From Crenothrix sp. D3 (GTDB lineage: Bacteria; Pseudomonadota; Gammaproteobacteria; Methylococcales; Methylomonadaceae): 64,000 bases of DNA. The translations under genes were made by a program, and so were the position numbers. A model generated the notes under the pieces. It was not told the DNA's origin, made no database searches, and saw only the letters and a list, made by a program, of their open reading frames with translations. Below, in pieces: positions 51,940-60,666 of the stretch. Position 1 is the first letter of the stretch. Every line of letters starts with the position of its first letter. The DNA lies in NCBI GenBank assembly GCA_002134785.1, contig MBQZ01000018.1, positions 248,001-312,000 of the forward strand, written 5' to 3'.

Positions 51940-51976
51940 ATGGATAAGTTATATAACAAAACAGGTGGATTAAGCG

Positions 51977-52078
51977 GTGTTCGATAGCGCGACATTTCTA
52001 AAGAATCTAACCACACGCTCTGGCATTTATAAAATGTTGAATGCAGACGGGGAGATTATTTATATTGGTGAAGAATGA
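51977..52078 (+). pseudogene. uvrC: Truncated 5' fragment of uvrC
   Basis: GTG start and 33 codons encoding MFDSATFLKNLTTRSGIYK and on to YIGEE, then TGA. It aligns codon by codon with the first 31 codons of the intact uvrC at 58855 at roughly 86% nucleotide identity and then breaks within the GIY-YIG domain. It marks the left edge of the 52-58.8 kb island. Confidence 0.9.
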
Positions 52079-52140
52079 TAGTAGGCTGTTAATATCAAGT
52101 TAGTATTACAATTTAATTAACTTCACGGAAAGATATAATC

Positions 52141-55100
52141 ATGTCGTTTTTTCAAATCGGACAATTCGTTGCCCTCAAATCCAATCCCAACAAGCAATTT
52201 CCTGTAATTGACATTTTACCTAGTCTAAACACAGAAACTCGATACAAAGTTTTTGTCGATAATGCGCCAGAAATTTATTATCAAAGCCAACTAATCAGCA
52301 TTACCAACGCATCAGTAAAACGACACAGCCTAACCGCCAACGCCCTAAAAGCCCGAATCACCGCACTACAACTACAAAACCCCTCCGCTTCACGCATTTA
52401 TTCCTTAAATTCGGGACGCATTCAATTTGTTCCTTATCAATATCGCCCTGTTTTAAAACTAATTCGTGCTGATAGACCGCGCTTATTAATCGCCGATGAA
52501 GTGGGTGTGGGTAAAACCATTGAAGCAGGTTTGATTTTAAAAGAACTCAAGGCGCGAATGGACATCAATTCCGTGCTGATTATCTGCCCAAAAGCCTTAG
52601 TCGCAGAGCAAAAATGGCATAATGAAATGAAACGTTTTGATGAAGACTTTGAGGCGTTAGACGGTACAACATTACGCTCTCGCCTTAAAGAAGCCGATTT
52701 AGAAGGGCAATGGTCACGCAAACATAATTACGTTATTTTGCCATTTTCTCTGTTTAACAGTGATTTAGTAGAAGGTAAAAAACCCAAAGGGTTATTAAAC
52801 CTAGACCCACCGCCCAAATTTGACCTAATCATCGTTGACGAAGCCCACCATTTACGCAACAGCGACACATGGTTACATCGTGGCGTTTCCCTGTTATGCG
52901 AACACGCACAAGCGGTAATTTTTTTATCAGCAACTCCGATTCAACTCGGCGCAGACGATTTATACACCCTGCTAAATTTATTACGCCCTGACCTCATTAT
53001 TGATAAAGCCAGTTTTAAAGCAATGGCAGAACCTAATCCACACTTAAACACTGCCATAGCCTGTTGTCGGAAAAAATCGGAAAACTGGCAAAACCAAGCC
53101 CAAGACGCATTACAAAACGCCGCCAATACCGATTGGGGACAGCATTTTTTACAGCATGACCCAGACTTTCAAGCGACTCAAACCGCGCTCAGTGATACCA
53201 ACCTCACTGAAACCCAGCGTGTTAAATTGGTACGCAACATTGAATCTTTTTACACCTTTAATTCATTGATTAATCGCACACGCCGCCGTGATATTGGCAA
53301 CTTCACCCAACGCAAACCACAAACCATTGAAGTTGATTACACCGCGCCACAACGCCAACTGCATGATTGCTTGCTCGACATCATGGCGGACATTTACGCC
53401 TACAGTCATGGTGAACGTAGCGTTAAATTTATGCTCAGCACCATTCGCCGCCAAGCCGCCAGTTGTTTGCATGGACTCGCGCCATTATTGAAAGATATGC
53501 TAGAACGCAAACTAAACGCCTTGCAAATAACCGAACTTGCAGACGATGAAGACGATTTGTCTTTAGATATTCCCGAAAATATCAAACAAGACATTGAAAA
53601 AGTCATAGCCTTAGCCGAAGACTTGCCAACGGATGACCCAAAAGTAGAACGACTGTTAGCTTTAATCAAAGATAAACAGCAACAAGCCAATAACAAAATC
53701 CTGTTATTTTCCAGCTTTCGCCATACCTTACGTTATCTGGTCAACAACCTACCACAAGACGGTACGCGCTTTGGTTTGATACACGGTGAAATCAATCACG
53801 AAGACCGCGCCGATTTACGCAGCCGTTTTGCCTTACCGCGTGAAGACCAACACGCCATTGATTGTTTACTCTCATCGGAAGTCGGTTGCGAAGGCTTGGA
53901 TTTTCAATTTTGCGATTATTTAATCAACTATGATTTGCCGTGGAATCCCATGCGTATTGAACAACGCATAGGACGTATAGACCGCTACGGACAAAAAAGC
54001 GAAACCGTGGCAATCGTCAATTTCATCACACCAGACACTGTAGACGCTGATATTTATAACCGTTGCTTATTGCGTATTGGGGTATTTGAATCCGCTATTG
54101 GTGGTTGTGAAGCCATATTAGGTGACATTACTCAACAGATACACAGTATCAGCGAACAATTTGAACTCACCGAAGCTGAACGCCAAGAACGTTTACAACA
54201 GCTCGCCGACAACGACATCCGCATAATGCACGAACAAGAAGCCCTAGAAAATAGCGAAGCCGAATTGTTTGGCATTGATATAAGCAAACAAGCATGGGAT
54301 GAAACTTTAGCACAAGCGACTAGCCCATTTTTAACCTCTGAAGCCATGCAACGCCTTGTTTCCCATTATCTACAACAACGCTTAGCCAAAGAACACGAGC
54401 TTATTCAAGGTGAAAAACCCACCAAAACCCTGCGTTTAACCAAAGAAGACCGACAACAATTATTAGCCGACAATGCCAAACTCAACGCCCACAGCAAAGA
54501 AACCGTTGCTAGAGATTGGGAACACTGGCTTAAAGGCAGTGAACTTACTCTAGCCATTAGCTTTACTCAGGAAGGCGCAGCTGAACACAGCAAAGTACAA
54601 TTGATTGATACCTTGCATCCTTTAACACGTCTAGCCATGCAAGCCGTATTAACCGAACCACAAGCTTACAGTTCCTTAACCGCCAATAGTACCGACATTG
54701 CCGCTGGACTATACCCGTTTGCCATCTATCGCTGGGACAGCAAAGGCGTTAAAGCTGACCAAGAATTTATCGCCGTCACAGAAAACCCCGATTTACGCGC
54801 ACAACTCATGACCTTACTTGCTGATGCCGACACAGGAACAGCCGACTTACCCGAACAAAGCGTATTTGATGACTTGGAACAACACCATTACCAACTCTGG
54901 CAACACGCCCAAGCCGAACATCAAGCCAAAAATCGCCAACGGGTTGAACATCGTTTACAAAGTTTGCGTAACAGTCACGCGGCGCGTGTCGCCTTGTTGC
55001 GTGATACTATCCAGCGCAATACCAATCCGCTGATTCAAACCATGAAACAAGCGGAACTACACAATGCTGAAGCGGATTATCAATACCGTGTTAGTCAGTT

Positions 55101-55188
55101 AGAAAATGACCGTGATGCGGGCGATATACACGCGCAAGCGGTGTTATTTGGGATTTTAGAAATCAGAGCTTCTGAGGAAAAACAATGA
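52141..55188 (+). CDS. SNF2-family helicase, putative defence gene
   Basis: A 1015-residue superfamily 2 ATPase. Motif I ADEVGVGKTIEAG (Walker A 119-127), DEAHH (233-237), motif III SATPIQ and motif VI QRIGRIDRYGQ (608-618) are all intact. The N-terminal ~100 residues look like a small beta-barrel domain (FQIGQFVALKSNPNKQFPV). The long C-terminus (700-1015) is Gln/Glu-rich and helical. It resembles the HepA/RapA-like helicases of DISARM (DrmD) and related defence loci. A GGAAAG box precedes 52141. It overlaps the next gene by four bases. Confidence 0.88.
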   Translation: MSFFQIGQFVALKSNPNKQFPVIDILPSLNTETRYKVFVDNAPEIYYQSQLISITNASVKRHSLTANALKARITALQLQNPSASRIYSLNSGRIQFVPYQYRPVLKLIRADRPRLLIADEVGVGKTIEAGLILKELKARMDINSVLIICPKALVAEQKWHNEMKRFDEDFEALDGTTLRSRLKEADLEGQWSRKHNYVILPFSLFNSDLVEGKKPKGLLNLDPPPKFDLIIVDEAHHLRNSDTWLHRGVSLLCEHAQAVIFLSATPIQLGADDLYTLLNLLRPDLIIDKASFKAMAEPNPHLNTAIACCRKKSENWQNQAQDALQNAANTDWGQHFLQHDPDFQATQTALSDTNLTETQRVKLVRNIESFYTFNSLINRTRRRDIGNFTQRKPQTIEVDYTAPQRQLHDCLLDIMADIYAYSHGERSVKFMLSTIRRQAASCLHGLAPLLKDMLERKLNALQITELADDEDDLSLDIPENIKQDIEKVIALAEDLPTDDPKVERLLALIKDKQQQANNKILLFSSFRHTLRYLVNNLPQDGTRFGLIHGEINHEDRADLRSRFALPREDQHAIDCLLSSEVGCEGLDFQFCDYLINYDLPWNPMRIEQRIGRIDRYGQKSETVAIVNFITPDTVDADIYNRCLLRIGVFESAIGGCEAILGDITQQIHSISEQFELTEAERQERLQQLADNDIRIMHEQEALENSEAELFGIDISKQAWDETLAQATSPFLTSEAMQRLVSHYLQQRLAKEHELIQGEKPTKTLRLTKEDRQQLLADNAKLNAHSKETVARDWEHWLKGSELTLAISFTQEGAAEHSKVQLIDTLHPLTRLAMQAVLTEPQAYSSLTANSTDIAAGLYPFAIYRWDSKGVKADQEFIAVTENPDLRAQLMTLLADADTGTADLPEQSVFDDLEQHHYQLWQHAQAEHQAKNRQRVEHRLQSLRNSHAARVALLRDTIQRNTNPLIQTMKQAELHNAEADYQYRVSQLENDRDAGDIHAQAVLFGILEIRASEEKQ

Positions 55189-58100
55189 GCAAAATAGATT
55201 ACGAAAAAATCCGCCAAGATAATATTGAAGAATACGGCAAAGGCACACGCCACCTTTCTTATCTTGCTGATATTTATAACACTCGAACTCATTTTATTTT
55301 TGAAGTTTTGCAAAATGCCGAAGATGCGCTTTCACGCCGTGTATCATCAAAGGATTCGGGGTATGTGCGCTTTCATTTATATGACGATAAACTTGAAATT
55401 TATCACAACGGTAAAGCATTTGATGAACGCGATGTAATAGGTATTTGCGGCATTGGCGAAGGGACTAAAGCAGACGATTACACGCAAATCGGTAAATTTG
55501 GTATTGGTTTCAAGTCTGTTTATAACTACAGTTTTTTTCCACAAATTCATTCCGAAAACGAACATTTTGAAATAAGCCGATTCGTTGAACCTTATGCTAT
55601 CGAAGCAACAACCAATAAAGATACCTTGATTGTTTTGCCGTTTGACAAACCAGAAAAAAGACCTGAATGGGCGACGAAGTTTCGTGACAATGTGAATGCT
55701 GATGATGCGGTATCAGAAATCAGCGAAGCAATTAATAAACTGAGTATTCGCACCTTGCTGTTTTTACAGTACGTTGAAAAAATTGAATGGATATTGCCAG
55801 ATGGAAAACAGGGAATATTAGCCAGAAAAAATAAATCTAAAAATAAACGAGATAATTGGTGTATTGTTGAAGTTAGCGACCATTTAGCAAAAACGGAACA
55901 ATGGCAAATTTTTTCAAACGATATTGATGTTACAGAGAGCAATAAAAAACACTCTGCAAAAATTGAAATTGCTTTTTTACTTGAAAAAGGCAAAGTGATT
56001 AAAGCGCATGATACTGAATTGGTTGTTTCATTTCCGACTAAAGAGAAAACAGAACTTGGTTTTTTGATTCAAGCCCCCTTTAAAGTCACTAAATCGCGTG
56101 ACAATATCAAAAGCGATTATGATTCGGCAAACCATCAAATGATTAACACTGCCGCGCAATTGGTCACTGATAGTTTATTGATTTTGCGCGATGCCAAAAA
56201 ATTAAATGTTGCTAGTTATAACGCACTGCCTTTAAACGAAGAGAATTTTTCAGAAAATAGTTTTTTCCGTCCTGTTTATGACCAAGTGCGTGAAGCACTG
56301 AAAACACAAGCCTTATTGCCTGCACATAATGGTAGTTTTATTAAAGCGAATGAAGCAAAACTCGCACGCATTCAACCATTAGTGGATTTATTTTCACCTA
56401 AACAATTGGGTGCATTATTCAATAAAAAACAGTTATTTTGGTTGGATTCATCTATCACTGAAAGTGGTATTTATAAAGATATTTACGACTATTTGAAGCA
56501 TCTTGTTTCTGATATTGAAGTATCCGTTGATAATAAATTAACATCAAAATTAACGGATGAGTTTTTTAGCAAACGATCAATAAATTGGCTAATTCAATTT
56601 ATTTTATACGCAGAGCAAGGAGCTAAACCTCTTAAAAACCTTCCTTTTGTTCGTCTTCAATCAGGCAAGCAAGTAAAAACAAAAAGCGACACTCCAAACG
56701 AAGTAACAGCTTGGTTTAAACCGAATAATACCGAAGGCTTGGATTTAACAATATTTGAAATAGTACATGATAAATTAGCTAAAAACATAGATGTTAAAAC
56801 CTTTTTGAACAAAGAAGGTATTGATAAAATTAAACTTGAAGATATAGTTGTTAATTGTTTATTGCCAAAATATAAAAATTCTGTTGAGTTTAATTCTGAT
56901 GATTATCTAAAAGATTTACAGCAAATTGCAGAAGCGTATGTGCATGGTAATGACAATACAAAGGTATATCTTGAAGAAAAATTAAACGAAACAGCATGGT
57001 TAGCTTGTATTAAGTTCGGCGACAATGAAACAGAAATTTTCTGGAAAAAACCAAAGAGTAATTTATTCGATAAACCAAGCGATATTGAAATGCCATCATC
57101 TATAACAGAAGATAGCCAAGTCTATTTTTTGCATTCGATTTTTGAACATGAATCATTTAATTCATGTCACTCATTTAAAAAGTTTTTAGATAAATGCGTC
57201 CATGAAATGGATACGGTAGCTATTGTTGAAAAGTTTATATTACCAAAATATCCGCTAGAAAATTTCAATGAAGAAGAATATCACGCGGATTTACAGTTGA
57301 TTTCAAAAGCCCGTTATGCAATTGATTTAAAAACAGTTAATTGGGTCGCTTGTATTCATGCTAGTGGCAATATGTCCGATATTGTTTGGAAAAAAACTAA
57401 TGAGCCAGCTTTATATAAAAAGGATGGCAACTGTGAAACATGGTTTAAAGGATTAATAAATATTGATGCTTATTTTTTGCATCAATCAATTATTGAAGAA
57501 TTAGACGAAAATTACATAAATCAAGTAATTAACCCTGCTAATACCTTAATTAAAAACCTATCCTCATCTGACAACGAAACAATTTGCTTAGTAAATGCAA
57601 TTCCTAGAAATGAACATTGTAAATATTTAAAAGGTAGCAATAATTCTTATTATCAAGGTCTAAACGGATTTAAACCTAACGTACTAATTTATGGTTTAGA
57701 ACAGGCATTTAATTCATGGAATATTGATAGATTTAGAATTTTTTGGAGAATATTACTTTCTGCACCAAGAATTATTAACGGAGAAATCCGTTCTGAAACC
57801 AGAAAAACTCTTTTATCCACTGCAATACCTAAATCAATGGATACCGAAGTTGGCAAGTTATGCTATAGCAATCAATGGATTCCAGACAAAACTGGTAACT
57901 GGCATAAACCCAGTGAATTATTACTCACCGATTTACCCGATGAATTTGAAACAAGTTCTATTAGTGCCAAAGAAGTCGCTGAAAAATTGGGCATGAAAAA
58001 GCCAGAGGTTGAGCAAGCTATTAATATTATTGCAAGAGATGACCACGATTTAAGACGATTAATTGAGCGTTATCAATCAGGTTCAGATGCTGAACGGCAA

Positions 58101-58739
58101 AAAATTCTCAAAATGATTCCACAAGAAGAAATCCCACCACAATCAGCCCTATCTTTTAAAAAAGGAATTAGTAATTTATTCCGTCCACAAAGGGGCAGTA
58201 TTTCAGCAAGTGATGCAGATAATTCAAACTACGCAATACCTGATACCAACCGTTATCAGAACAAATTGGATAAAGCAGTAGAAGAAGATGTAGAACATCA
58301 CCAAACTACACCGCAAACAATTCGTTTTTCACCAGTACGTCAATCACAATCAAATAAAGAAGCGCGTGATTTTCTCTATGAGCAATATCAAGGTTACTGC
58401 CAAATAACAAGTAATACCTTTCCCAAAGCCTCGGTGAATGCTAACGGTGAAGCTGAAAACTATTTTGAAGCCTGTTCACTGCTTTCTTATAGCAATGCTG
58501 ATTATCTAAACAATGAAGGCAATATGTTGTGTGTCAGTGCCGATACAATGGCAAAGTTGAAAACTGCCAGCTTTGAATGGTTGGATGATTTAGAAACAAT
58601 TATTAAGGATTTTGAACAAAGAGAAATTGGAGAAATGGACACAGTAGCTGTAAAGATTCGCTTAGCAGGTGAAGAATGTCAAATCACTTGGAGTGAACGC
58701 CATTTTCCCCGTTTTGTCGCTTTATGGAACGAAGCATGA
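55185..58739 (+). CDS. Sacsin-like GHKL/HSP90-type ATPase, putative defence gene
   Basis: An 1184-residue protein. The N-terminal GHKL domain has the N box EVLQNAEDA (E40, N44), HNGKAF, GICGIGEGTK and G2 IGKFGIGFK (102-110), as in sacsin-type ATPases. The large middle (250-1050) has weakly repeated segments (KPKSNLFDKPSD; KKTNEPALYKKDG), each with a WLACI/WVACI core. The C-terminal ~1060-1150 resembles a zinc/HNH-type domain but lacks most metal ligands. It is translationally coupled to the helicase. It is more AT-rich in the middle than neighbouring housekeeping genes. Nucleic-acid sensing or an anti-phage role is inferred. Confidence 0.85.
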   Translation: MSKIDYEKIRQDNIEEYGKGTRHLSYLADIYNTRTHFIFEVLQNAEDALSRRVSSKDSGYVRFHLYDDKLEIYHNGKAFDERDVIGICGIGEGTKADDYTQIGKFGIGFKSVYNYSFFPQIHSENEHFEISRFVEPYAIEATTNKDTLIVLPFDKPEKRPEWATKFRDNVNADDAVSEISEAINKLSIRTLLFLQYVEKIEWILPDGKQGILARKNKSKNKRDNWCIVEVSDHLAKTEQWQIFSNDIDVTESNKKHSAKIEIAFLLEKGKVIKAHDTELVVSFPTKEKTELGFLIQAPFKVTKSRDNIKSDYDSANHQMINTAAQLVTDSLLILRDAKKLNVASYNALPLNEENFSENSFFRPVYDQVREALKTQALLPAHNGSFIKANEAKLARIQPLVDLFSPKQLGALFNKKQLFWLDSSITESGIYKDIYDYLKHLVSDIEVSVDNKLTSKLTDEFFSKRSINWLIQFILYAEQGAKPLKNLPFVRLQSGKQVKTKSDTPNEVTAWFKPNNTEGLDLTIFEIVHDKLAKNIDVKTFLNKEGIDKIKLEDIVVNCLLPKYKNSVEFNSDDYLKDLQQIAEAYVHGNDNTKVYLEEKLNETAWLACIKFGDNETEIFWKKPKSNLFDKPSDIEMPSSITEDSQVYFLHSIFEHESFNSCHSFKKFLDKCVHEMDTVAIVEKFILPKYPLENFNEEEYHADLQLISKARYAIDLKTVNWVACIHASGNMSDIVWKKTNEPALYKKDGNCETWFKGLINIDAYFLHQSIIEELDENYINQVINPANTLIKNLSSSDNETICLVNAIPRNEHCKYLKGSNNSYYQGLNGFKPNVLIYGLEQAFNSWNIDRFRIFWRILLSAPRIINGEIRSETRKTLLSTAIPKSMDTEVGKLCYSNQWIPDKTGNWHKPSELLLTDLPDEFETSSISAKEVAEKLGMKKPEVEQAINIIARDDHDLRRLIERYQSGSDAERQKILKMIPQEEIPPQSALSFKKGISNLFRPQRGSISASDADNSNYAIPDTNRYQNKLDKAVEEDVEHHQTTPQTIRFSPVRQSQSNKEARDFLYEQYQGYCQITSNTFPKASVNANGEAENYFEACSLLSYSNADYLNNEGNMLCVSADTMAKLKTASFEWLDDLETIIKDFEQREIGEMDTVAVKIRLAGEECQITWSERHFPRFVALWNEA

Positions 58740-58783
58740 ATTTTACCGAACGACGCACAGAAATCCGTGAATACACTTGCTAG
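58736..58783 (+). pseudogene. 15-codon stump of a third coupled island gene
   Basis: The ATG overlaps the TGA of the GHKL gene (ATGA). It encodes MNFTERRTEIREYTC, an ordinary-looking gene start, followed by TAG. The remaining bases to uvrC have no reading frame of note. This suggests an operon member lost when the island was joined to uvrC. Confidence 0.5.
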
Positions 58784-58854
58784 ATTTAAAAACCATTTTA
58801 AACCGTTTGGCAGCAGTGCAGTTTTTACAAGCGTAACTATGGGTAGGCTAAGCC

Positions 58855-60666
58855 GTGTTCGATAGCACAACATTTTTAAAAAATCTCACCACGCAAGCGG
58901 GCATTTATAAAATGCTGAATGCGGAGGGGGAGATTATTTATATTGGTAAGGCGAAGAATCTTAAAAATCGCGTTGCCAGTTATTTCAAAAACTCAGCCAC
59001 GACGCTGAAACAGCAGGCGATGGTGGCTAAAATTGCCGCTATTGAGGTGACAGTCACGCAGACCGAAAACGAGGCGTTGTTGCTGGAATGTCAGCAAATC
59101 AAGCTGCATAAGCCGCGTTATAATATTTGTTTGCGGGATGATAAATCTTACCCTTATATTTTTCTGTCTAATCACGAATTTCCGCAAATCAGTTTGCACC
59201 GTGGTGCGAAACGCAAGTTAGGGCGTTATTTTGGCCCGTATCCGAGTTCGGGGGCGGCGCGGGAAAGTTTGAAGTTGTTGCAGAGATTATTTCCTATTCG
59301 CCAATGTGAGGAATCAGTTTATAACAATCGCACGCGCCCTTGTTTGCAGTATCAAATCGGGCGTTGTACCGCGCCGTGTGTGGGGTTGATTGATAAAGCG
59401 AGTTACGCGCTGGATGTGAAAAATACGGTGCTGTTTTTGGAGGGTAAAAGTGGGCTATTAATTAATGAGTTAATTGTGAGTATGGATAAAGCCGCTGCTG
59501 AACTTAATTTTGAACACGCGGCACGATTGAGAGATCAAATTTCACGGTTGCGGTCGTTATTAGACACACAGTCTGTTAATGATGAGCAAGGAGATATGGA
59601 TATTATTGCCTGTGCGACGCAAGCCAATGTCGCGTGTGTGCAGGTGTTTTTTATTCGTAACGGTCAGCATTTAGGGCATAAGGTTTTTTTTCCGAAAATG
59701 ACTGAGGTGCATGAAGCGGCTGCGGTGTTGCAAGCCTTTATTCCCCAGTATTATTTCGATAAACCCATGCCGCATGAGTTAATTATTAGTCATGAGTTAG
59801 CGGAAATGGATTTGTTACGCGAGACCTTAGCCAGCCACGCTAATCACGCGTTGACAATTAGTTATAAAGCGAAAGATGAGCGGTTGAAGTGGCTAGAAAT
59901 GGCGCGTAACAATGCCGAAAATGCTTTATTAACTCACATTGCATCTAAGCAAAATCTACACGCTCGCTTTGTGAGTTTGCAGCAAATACTCGGTTGTAAA
60001 GACGTGCCTAATCGTCTGGAATGTTTTGATATTAGTCATACACAAGGCGAGCAAACGGTGGCATCTTGCGTGGTATTTGATAGAGAGGGCGCGGTTAAAT
60101 CGGCTTATCGGCGATTTAATATCACGGGTATTGCAGGTGGTGATGATTATGCAGCGATTCATCAAGCGGTTTTTAGACGCTTTAAACGCTTGCAACAAGG
60201 GGAACATCAAGCCCCCGATATAGTGTTTATCGACGGTGGCAAAGGTCAAGTGCATGAAGCGCAAAAGGCATTAGCAGAATTAGCTATAAACAATGTTATG
60301 ATAGTGGGTGTTGCAAAAGGAGAGCAGCGAAAGGCTGGCATGGAGAAACTAATTGTTCTAAATCAGAATCAGCCAATAGTAGCAGTGGGGTCTGGCGGTT
60401 TGTTGTTGATTCAACAAATTCGTGACGAAGCACATCGATTTGCCATCACAGGACATAGGCAAAGTCGAGCCAAGGCAAGTAAAAAATCAGTTTTAGAATC
60501 CATTTCAGGGTTAGGAACTAAGCGACGGCAGCTATTATTAAAACAGTTTGGGGGGTTGCAAGGTGTAGCACGCGCGAGTGTGGATGCGCTTTGTAACATA
60601 GATGGCATTAGCCGAACGTTGGCACAACGAATTTACGATACCTTTCATCATTCAGATGACCATTGA
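58855..60666 (+). CDS. uvrC: Excinuclease ABC subunit C
   Basis: Makes both incisions in nucleotide excision repair with UvrAB. Residues 16-90 form the GIY-YIG nuclease (AGIYKMLNAEGEIIYIGKAKNLKNR). The UVR domain that contacts UvrB is near 200-240 (AAAELNFEHAARLRDQI), then the RNase H-like nuclease (CFDISHTQGEQTVAS, FIDGGKGQ), and a C-terminal double helix-hairpin-helix (SISGLGTKRRQLLLKQFGG). The 603-residue length is normal. The start is GTG at 58855, as in the broken left copy; AGG lies about 9 bases before. It overlaps pgsA. Confidence 0.95.
   Translation: MFDSTTFLKNLTTQAGIYKMLNAEGEIIYIGKAKNLKNRVASYFKNSATTLKQQAMVAKIAAIEVTVTQTENEALLLECQQIKLHKPRYNICLRDDKSYPYIFLSNHEFPQISLHRGAKRKLGRYFGPYPSSGAARESLKLLQRLFPIRQCEESVYNNRTRPCLQYQIGRCTAPCVGLIDKASYALDVKNTVLFLEGKSGLLINELIVSMDKAAAELNFEHAARLRDQISRLRSLLDTQSVNDEQGDMDIIACATQANVACVQVFFIRNGQHLGHKVFFPKMTEVHEAAAVLQAFIPQYYFDKPMPHELIISHELAEMDLLRETLASHANHALTISYKAKDERLKWLEMARNNAENALLTHIASKQNLHARFVSLQQILGCKDVPNRLECFDISHTQGEQTVASCVVFDREGAVKSAYRRFNITGIAGGDDYAAIHQAVFRRFKRLQQGEHQAPDIVFIDGGKGQVHEAQKALAELAINNVMIVGVAKGEQRKAGMEKLIVLNQNQPIVAVGSGGLLLIQQIRDEAHRFAITGHRQSRAKASKKSVLESISGLGTKRRQLLLKQFGGLQGVARASVDALCNIDGISRTLAQRIYDTFHHSDDH

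What the first reader, a model, noticed from the sequence alone, without database searches (positions are those of the whole stretch)
52079..58783. Two-gene SNF2 helicase plus sacsin-like GHKL ATPase island, with a stump of a third gene
Seen: a 1015-residue helicase with intact SF2 motifs and an 1184-residue GHKL ATPase, joined by an ATGA overlap, followed by another ATGA overlap into a 15-codon ORF that ends in TAG. Known: SNF2-like helicases and GHKL ATPases recur in prokaryotic defence loci (for example DISARM DrmD-like helicases and MORC/MutL-like systems). Inference: this is a two-protein defence module, or the surviving part of a larger one. The pairing does not match a named two-gene system that I can recall.
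Basis: partly seen in the sequence, partly recalled or inferred. Interest (0 to 1): 0.78.

Follow-up and report, generated by a model that had tools for sequence, protein, structure and literature searches.

The report
Helicase and sacsin-like ATPase gene pair
Two overlapping genes, a DNA helicase and a chaperone-like ATPase, travel together as a probably defensive pair in distant bacteria and some archaea; the ATPase partner is exchanged over time, and the odd third-gene stump is probably a leftover of an earlier partner.

Summary
In detail: helicase 52141-55188 and GHKL ATPase 55185-58739, ATGA overlap, then a 15-codon ORF. The pair is a conserved but patchy two-gene module: in 75 of 83 related loci (14 named phyla, one archaeal) the GHKL gene directly follows this helicase. 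It met no PADLOC/NCBIfam system I tested (not DISARM; only half of the Tiamat protein matches). Most relatives' helicases carry an N-terminal Swt1-like HEPN RNase domain; the window's does not. The island lies between a 106-nt copy of the 5' end of uvrC and intact uvrC, a spot that holds type II restriction-modification genes in 3 of 6 congeners. New: (1) helicase and GHKL histories disagree (window vs L034: helicase 77%, GHKL 33%; AU p 5e-49), so GHKL partners are exchanged; (2) GHKL tails are of two exchangeable HNH-fold types, and displaced tails persist downstream in L077 and L115 (E 5e-27, 2e-11); (3) the 'third-gene stump' is not a conserved gene and looks like such a relic of an L034-like tail (0 of 1401 random stretches and 0 of 1401 shuffles score as high; a stricter family-profile test gave only p about 0.005-0.03, and the match was noticed before it was tested). 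Defence is inferred from context, not tested.

The parts
51964..52078 (+). Truncated copy of the uvrC 5' end (106 nt, 84% identical to 58842-58947), reading frame from GTG 51977 closed by TGA 52076-52078; left edge of the island
   Evidence: frame read
52141..55188 (+). RapA/DrmD-like SNF2 (SF2) helicase, 1015 aa, all motifs intact, no N-terminal HEPN domain
55185..58739 (+). Sacsin/Hsp90-like GHKL ATPase, 1184 aa; GHKL plus transducer (S5-like) region about residues 15-340
58290..58736 (+). C-terminal HNH-fold tail of the GHKL protein (residues 1036-1184), type A; both catalytic histidines of the HNH motif appear replaced
58736..58835 (+). The 'third-gene stump': 15-codon ORF 58736-58783; matches in 58739-58771 and 58771-58803 the start and the end of the L034-like type-B GHKL tail, about 128 residues missing between, one-base frame offset
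58855..60666 (+). Intact uvrC (603 aa), right edge of the island

Best explanation
A horizontally mobile two-gene module, most likely an anti-phage or anti-plasmid immune system. Shown: the two genes are conserved as a tight operon; the helicase is the conserved partner; the GHKL gene is replaced as a whole and its tail as a cassette, leaving relics of displaced tails. Inferred mechanism: the helicase (RapA-like SNF2 motor) moves on duplex DNA and senses an abnormal or foreign DNA or transcription complex; the sacsin/Hsp90-like protein closes as an ATP-driven clamp on the helicase or its target; its variable body and HNH-fold tail read a feature of the invader, hence their exchange under an arms race. 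In the majority version the HEPN RNase fused to the helicase would be unleashed and stop translation (abortive infection). The window's version lacks HEPN and would act either by ATP-driven stalling or remodelling of the invader's DNA, or through the type-A HNH-like tail. The window's present GHKL gene replaced an L034-like one, and the stump is what is left of that gene's tail.
For: Patchiness: 0 of 40 other relatives. Context: restriction-modification genes at the same uvrC spot in G369, G370, G371; flanking proteins of relatives match type III RM, HamB, QatA, TIR-Argonaute-type and HEC/PDC models (no control). HEPN: 61 of 88 helicases, RNase motif kept in 60 of 61. Exchange: of 55 helicase pairs at >=75% identity, 16 have GHKL (residues 1-420) below 40%, 6 pairs without shared members; AU test rejects GHKL clades WIN+L034 (5e-49), L115+L066 (4e-11), L050+L059 (1e-63) although their helicases are 77%, 91% and 87% identical. 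Relics downstream: L077 4.7e-27, L115 1.9e-11, L062 1e-4; window stump 0 of 1401 and 0 of 1401.
Against: No functional data. No methylase or active nuclease in the window's island; the HNH-fold tail seems to lack both histidines, so the effector of the window's version is unknown. HEPN does not alternate strictly with tail type (L050 and L115 have HEPN and tail A). The stump's match was seen before it was tested; with a family profile 23 of 3000 random stretches and 14 of 3000 shuffles reach it, and the two-hit statistic 92 and 81 of 3000. The lower GC3 of the window's GHKL gene is weak support for a foreign origin, since GHKL is below helicase in 60 of 64 other pairs. The loci were chosen by helicase similarity, so 75 of 83 describes this helicase clade only. 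L073, L080, L097 and L044 break the pattern.
Confidence: 0.62

Rival explanations
1. A member or remnant of DISARM or of another DrmD/BrxH helicase system that lost its other genes.
For: Best PADLOC models are DrmD (E 4.4e-117) and BrxH (1e-60).
Against: NCBIfam DrmD equivalog cut-off not reached (323 of 610 bits); no DrmA/B/C or methylase among the 7 neighbouring proteins searched; no MZB domain in the whole genome; the partner in relatives is a GHKL ATPase in 75 of 83 loci.
Confidence: 0.05
2. A transcription- or repair-related accessory pair (RapA-like helicase plus Hsp90-like chaperone) of general stress use, not immunity.
For: RapA is the closest solved relative (E 2.8e-35); sacsin/Hsp90 fold of the partner; alphaproteobacterial versions have an extra upstream gene that looks sigma-factor-like to me (no Pfam hit).
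Against: RapA equivalog cut-off not reached (193 of 576); very patchy distribution; HEPN RNase in most; partner and tail exchange.
Confidence: 0.15
3. A restriction-like system of the MORC/paraMORC type: GHKL ATPase and SNF2 helicase working with a nuclease, in the sense of Iyer 2008 (PMC2292703), with the HNH-fold tail as nuclease.
For: PMC2292703 (sections 4 and 5 read) describes GHKL+S5 proteins beside SFII, including SWI2/SNF2, helicases in restriction operons and displacement of one GHKL family by another. Tail has an HNH fold (TagI Z 8.5).
Against: No methylase in the window's island or as a constant neighbour; histidines of the HNH motif replaced in both tail types (by inspection); the GHKL here is sacsin-like, a family those sections do not mention.
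Confidence: 0.15
4. The stump is a chance ORF or insertion-junction debris, and the GHKL discordance is fast evolution only.
For: Family-profile test of the stump is weak; GHKL evolves faster than the helicase in general.
Against: Identities are split, not graded: at helicase >=85% GHKL is 26-29% or 69-87%; AU tests; clear tail relics in L077 and L115; stump best matches L034, the helicase's own sister, of 64 tails tried.
Confidence: 0.2

Closest known systems
DISARM DrmD (SNF2-like helicase)
   Same: Same helicase superfamily, near full-length alignment (PADLOC PDLC02623, residues 7-908)
   Different: Below NCBIfam equivalog cut-off; no DrmA/B/C or methylase; constant partner is a sacsin-like ATPase
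Tiamat (PADLOC TmtA; that TmtA stands for Tiamat is recalled)
   Same: Residues 28-587 match TmtA (E 8.5e-60): same GHKL/sacsin-type front half
   Different: TmtA models are 1063-1782 positions and (recalled) a single-gene system; here the tail differs and the protein is tied to a helicase
MORC/paraMORC GHKL-helicase restriction operons (Iyer 2008, PMC2292703, sections 4-5 read)
   Same: GHKL ATPase beside SWI2/SNF2 helicase; displacement of GHKL types; lateral mobility
   Different: Sacsin-type GHKL, two-gene core, HEPN on the helicase in most, tail-cassette exchange with relics
BREX-related helicases (PMC12839542, passages seen)
   Same: RapA-like SNF2 helicase; that paper reports HEPN fused to a core DUF499 ATPase in type 1 BREX-related systems
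   Different: No PglX/PglZ/BrxC-type genes among the window's neighbours; HEPN sits on the helicase
Hachiman HamAB (PMC12278908, passages seen)
   Same: Two-gene helicase-based genome-integrity sensing as a working analogy
   Different: Different helicase family and no HamA-like nuclease
Human sacsin / Hsp90
   Same: Fold of residues about 15-340 (sacsin SR1 5v47 Z 15.2, rmsd 2.7, 166 aligned; Hsc82 Z 15.8, rmsd 4.9, 266 aligned)
   Different: Body and HNH-fold tail are not those of sacsin or Hsp90

Membership tests
DISARM | DrmD equivalog helicase | tested here: not met
   323 bits against cut-off 610
DISARM | DrmA, DrmB, DrmC and a methylase beside it | tested here: not met
   None among the 7 neighbouring proteins searched in Pfam; no MZB domain in the own genome (that DrmB bears MZB/DUF1998 is recalled)
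Tiamat | Full-length TmtA protein | tested here: not met
   Only residues 28-587 match positions 35-598 of 1302
Tiamat | Stand-alone gene (recalled) | tested here: not met
   Helicase directly upstream in 75 of 83 related loci
RapA | RapA equivalog | tested here: not met
   193 bits against cut-off 576; closest solved relative is RapA
Sacsin-type GHKL ATPases | SACS / sacsin N-terminal ATP-binding domain | tested here: met
   PF25794 65 bits against 32.8; NF047352 81 against 50; fold
MORC family | GhXhhpXXRhl motif in the S5 domain (PMC2292703) | not tested
   Motif not searched
HEPN-SNF2/sacsin majority version of this module | Swt1-like HEPN at the helicase N-terminus | tested here: not met
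   No HEPN hit in the window's helicase; 61 of 88 helicases have one
HNH endonucleases | HNH (beta-beta-alpha-metal) fold of the tail | tested here: inconclusive
   VIA best TagI Z 8.5 (rmsd 3.4, 102 aligned), further HNH folds at Z 4-7, but Foldseek none at E<=0.001 (best Cap5 0.034)
HNH endonucleases | Catalytic histidines | tested here: not met
   By inspection of alignments A7 and A8: S and D/T in type A, E and C/A in type B at those places; placement is mine
Anti-phage defence system | Protection against phage or plasmid | not testable with these tools
   Needs an experiment

The most novel reading that the evidence does not exclude
A widespread, undescribed immune system in which one conserved helicase motor works with interchangeable sacsin-like recognition subunits. 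Whole subunits are swapped between lineages, and their HNH-fold tips are exchanged as cassettes that leave orphan tails behind, a tip-replacement mode like that of polymorphic toxins (recalled analogy) but in a sensor ATPase; the HEPN RNase is a detachable killer domain, and the window shows a killer-less version carrying the fossil of its earlier partner.
Probability: 0.45. Interest if true: 0.85.

Novelty: new variant of a known kind. Interest (0 to 1): 0.72.

Why it matters
Helicase-based immune systems are many, but how they tell foreign from own DNA is mostly open. Here evolution itself seems to point at the recognition part: the helicase stays, the GHKL partner and its tail change, and old tails remain readable as relics. 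That makes a direct test possible: swap partners or tails between relatives and see whether phage range follows. It would also give prokaryotic sacsin-like ATPases, a family best known from a human ataxia protein, a first concrete role.

Tried and rejected
Third gene: the peptide of the 15-codon ORF was searched by tblastn in the loci held; only the own genome matched well, so a conserved third gene was dropped; weak hits to GHKL tails in that output (L034, L041) started the relic idea. Effector swap: I expected HEPN-less versions to carry the HNH-like tail and HEPN versions not to; this failed. A decayed tail in the window was considered and rejected, since type A is shared by five GHKL proteins at 59-63% identity. 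Foreign origin of the GHKL gene from GC3 (25.1 against 40.5, lowest of 36 ORFs of at least 200 aa) was downgraded after the control. An integrase or tRNA site: no tRNA in the window, no integrase in the island. The copied uvrC end could be insertion with long target duplication (term and Nobusato 2000 seen only as cited in PMC3031569, passages) or acquisition with a donor's flank; not resolved. First genome-contig scan with the GHKL protein found no relative. Flanking-gene defence counts have no control and list only 25 of 175 families. Literature: ten searches; those aimed at the pair showed no paper describing a HEPN-SNF2/sacsin pair in that library; PMC3710099 (passages) lists a Swt1-like HEPN fused to a SWI2/SNF2 ATPase (WQE_15321) without a sacsin partner in what I saw. 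The Tiamat papers were seen as listings and, for PMC11811056, passages. PMC10853773, PMC8195603 and PMC12458937: passages only. C-terminal Pfam scan of 61 GHKL tails gave no HNH family at 0.05. Structure of the helicase was not predicted.
Full report
1. What is there. The helicase gene is 52141-55188 and the GHKL gene 55185-58739, both on the + strand and joined by an ATGA overlap; a second ATGA opens a 15-codon ORF that ends at 58783. The helicase has SNF2-rel_dom and Helicase_C; the second protein has the SACS domain. Motif residues are invariant among relatives.

2. Where it sits. Left of the pair, 51964-52069 is an 84% copy of 58842-58947, the 5' end of the intact uvrC gene (58855-60666) that lies right of it. 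The copy's frame, from GTG 51977, stops at TGA 52076 (read). In six congeners with uvrC (G369, G370, G371, G372, G373, G375; G374 gave no match at the limit) similarity to the window begins at or up to about 25 nt before the uvrC start, with different genes upstream. In G370 these are a XamI-type restriction enzyme and its methylase, in G371 the same system at 97-99% identity with the restriction gene split into two ORFs, in G369 a D12 methylase and a type II restriction enzyme. In G372 and G375 the nearest genes searched are ordinary (lon, ychF), and the G373 contig ends soon. In the fetched stretches no second uvrC end was found. The window's left neighbour (MgtC/DUF4010) lies on other contigs in the five congeners that have it. 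So the spot is variable and has taken up defence genes at least twice besides the window.

3. The pair is a unit. In these 83 loci a GHKL gene (profile E<=1e-5) follows the helicase directly in 75; 67 of 75 start within 60 nt of its end and 29 overlap by four bases. Some of the 75 are cut by contig ends and one (L092) is only a fragment. Four loci could not be judged (L055, L076, L086, L109: contig ends). Four did not fit: L044 (helicase interrupted by what reads like a reverse-transcriptase gene), L073 and L080 (another ORF follows, then the contig ends), L097 (GHKL upstream). The 75 include 14 named phyla, one archaeal; an archaeal plasmid has the pair too. In plasmids 4 of 4 records with the helicase at E<=1e-50 have the GHKL next to it, one judged by coordinates only. 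Among 369 genomes of the class 4 have the helicase (the own one included) and all 4 have the GHKL; in G316 the two lie at contig ends. Among 398 of the phylum 5 have it: own, three with the pair, and G548 with one ORF that matches helicase, GHKL and HEPN profiles, a deletion remnant. None of 40 other genomes of the genus, family and order had the GHKL.

4. HEPN. Pfam finds a Swt1-like HEPN at the N-terminus of a relative's helicase (L012, E 7.9e-18). By a profile made from it, 61 of 88 helicases have it, 60 of the 61 with the RNase motif R[NDHK]x3-5H, usually RNxWAH. Of 65 complete pairs 44 have it; on the helicase tree its presence needs 9 changes, at least 7 by starred branches. A few 'HEPN-less' rows begin at a contig end (for example L077), so absence is overcounted. 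The window and its sister L034 lack it.

5. Partner exchange. Of 55 helicase pairs at 75% identity or more, 16 have GHKL (residues 1-420) under 40%; six such pairs share no member: L066-L115, L050-L059, L068-L085, L100-L106, window-L034, L062-L077. At helicase identity 85% or more (12 pairs) GHKL is 26, 27, 29 or 69-87%. On the helicase tree window+L034 and L050+L059 are starred at 100; on the GHKL tree the window joins L050 (99) and AU tests reject window+L034, L115+L066 and L050+L059. The helicase tree is a quick one with long branches flagged; this does not touch pairs this close.

6. Tail exchange and relics. Type A tails (window, L050, L077, L064, L115) and type B tails (55 of the other 60 have the CQxC motif) are homologous (hhalign probability 93, E 2.5e-7). 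L077 and L085 share 87, 81, 74 and 59% along the GHKL protein but 31% in the last fifth; L064 and L115 are 27-34% in front and 66% at the end. A search behind the GHKL genes of 65 loci with a type-B tail profile found leftover tails in L077 (4.7e-27), L115 (1.9e-11) and L062 (1e-4). The window scored 3.6 bits there (E 0.85; 3 of 2000 shuffles as high). Compared directly with the tail of L034, its helicase's sister, 58739-58771 (NFTERRTEIRE) matches NAPEKRTEMRE and 58771-58803 (IHLLDLKTILN) matches IHLMDLKAVLS in that order; score 77, reached by 0 of 1401 random window stretches and 0 of 1401 shuffles, and L034 is the best of 64 tails. Against it: I had noticed the likeness before testing, and a family profile gives 23 of 3000 random and 14 of 3000 shuffled stretches for one hit and 92 and 81 of 3000 for two. 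I hold the relic reading likely, not proven.

7. Structure. The GHKL model (mean pLDDT 74) matches Hsp90, type II topoisomerase ATPases and sacsin SR1 over about residues 15-340. The tail alone (pLDDT 85) is nearest to HNH enzymes: TagI Z 8.5, McrA, Cap5 and Cas9 HNH at 4-7; Foldseek gave nothing at E<=0.001, and Z 8.5 is little above what unrelated folds can give, so the weight lies in the consistency. The histidines of HNH appear replaced in both types (my reading).

8. How it may work. Shown: conserved operon, conserved motor, exchanged partner and tail, optional HEPN. Inferred: motor senses, GHKL clamp recognises, HEPN kills in most versions; the window's version lacks the killer, and its effector is open.

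9. Known or new. Helicase: near DrmD and RapA but below both cut-offs. GHKL: half of Tiamat's TmtA. Concept: GHKL beside SNF2 helicases in restriction operons is in print (PMC2292703, sections 4 and 5). A HEPN-SNF2/sacsin pair, its exchange of partners or tail relics were not in what my searches showed. Neighbours of relatives include known defence genes (150 of 183 flanking proteins from 49 loci; no control).

Noticed in passing
L044 10001-13559: Helicase 83% identical to the window's is interrupted after residue 619 by an ORF that reads like a reverse transcriptase (FYARYVGDIVVIY); not searched against a family library.
   Followed up: partly
L112 1-8614: GHKL genes on both sides of the helicase.
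   Followed up: no
L097 3-4656: Gene order reversed: GHKL fragment upstream of the helicase.
   Followed up: no
L165 570-2495: One ORF matching HEPN, helicase and GHKL profiles: an internal deletion that fused the two genes.
   Followed up: partly
L017 4133-4684, L082 9267-9815, L093 9294-9821, L015 4152-4679: Alphaproteobacterial versions have a conserved ~180-aa gene overlapping or just before the helicase; it looks sigma-factor-like to me but has no Pfam or PADLOC hit in the two members searched.
   Followed up: partly
L012 11480-13276: GmrSD_N protein directly behind the pair.
   Followed up: no
64 related loci: GHKL gene has lower GC3 than the helicase in 60 of 64 pairs, median -5 points; cause unknown.
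   Followed up: no
L148 2269-3346: XamI-type restriction gene split into two ORFs in G371, intact in G370.
   Followed up: partly
G371:C116:11106-11741: A second, partial uvrC match (residues 1-212, 90%) in G371.
   Followed up: no
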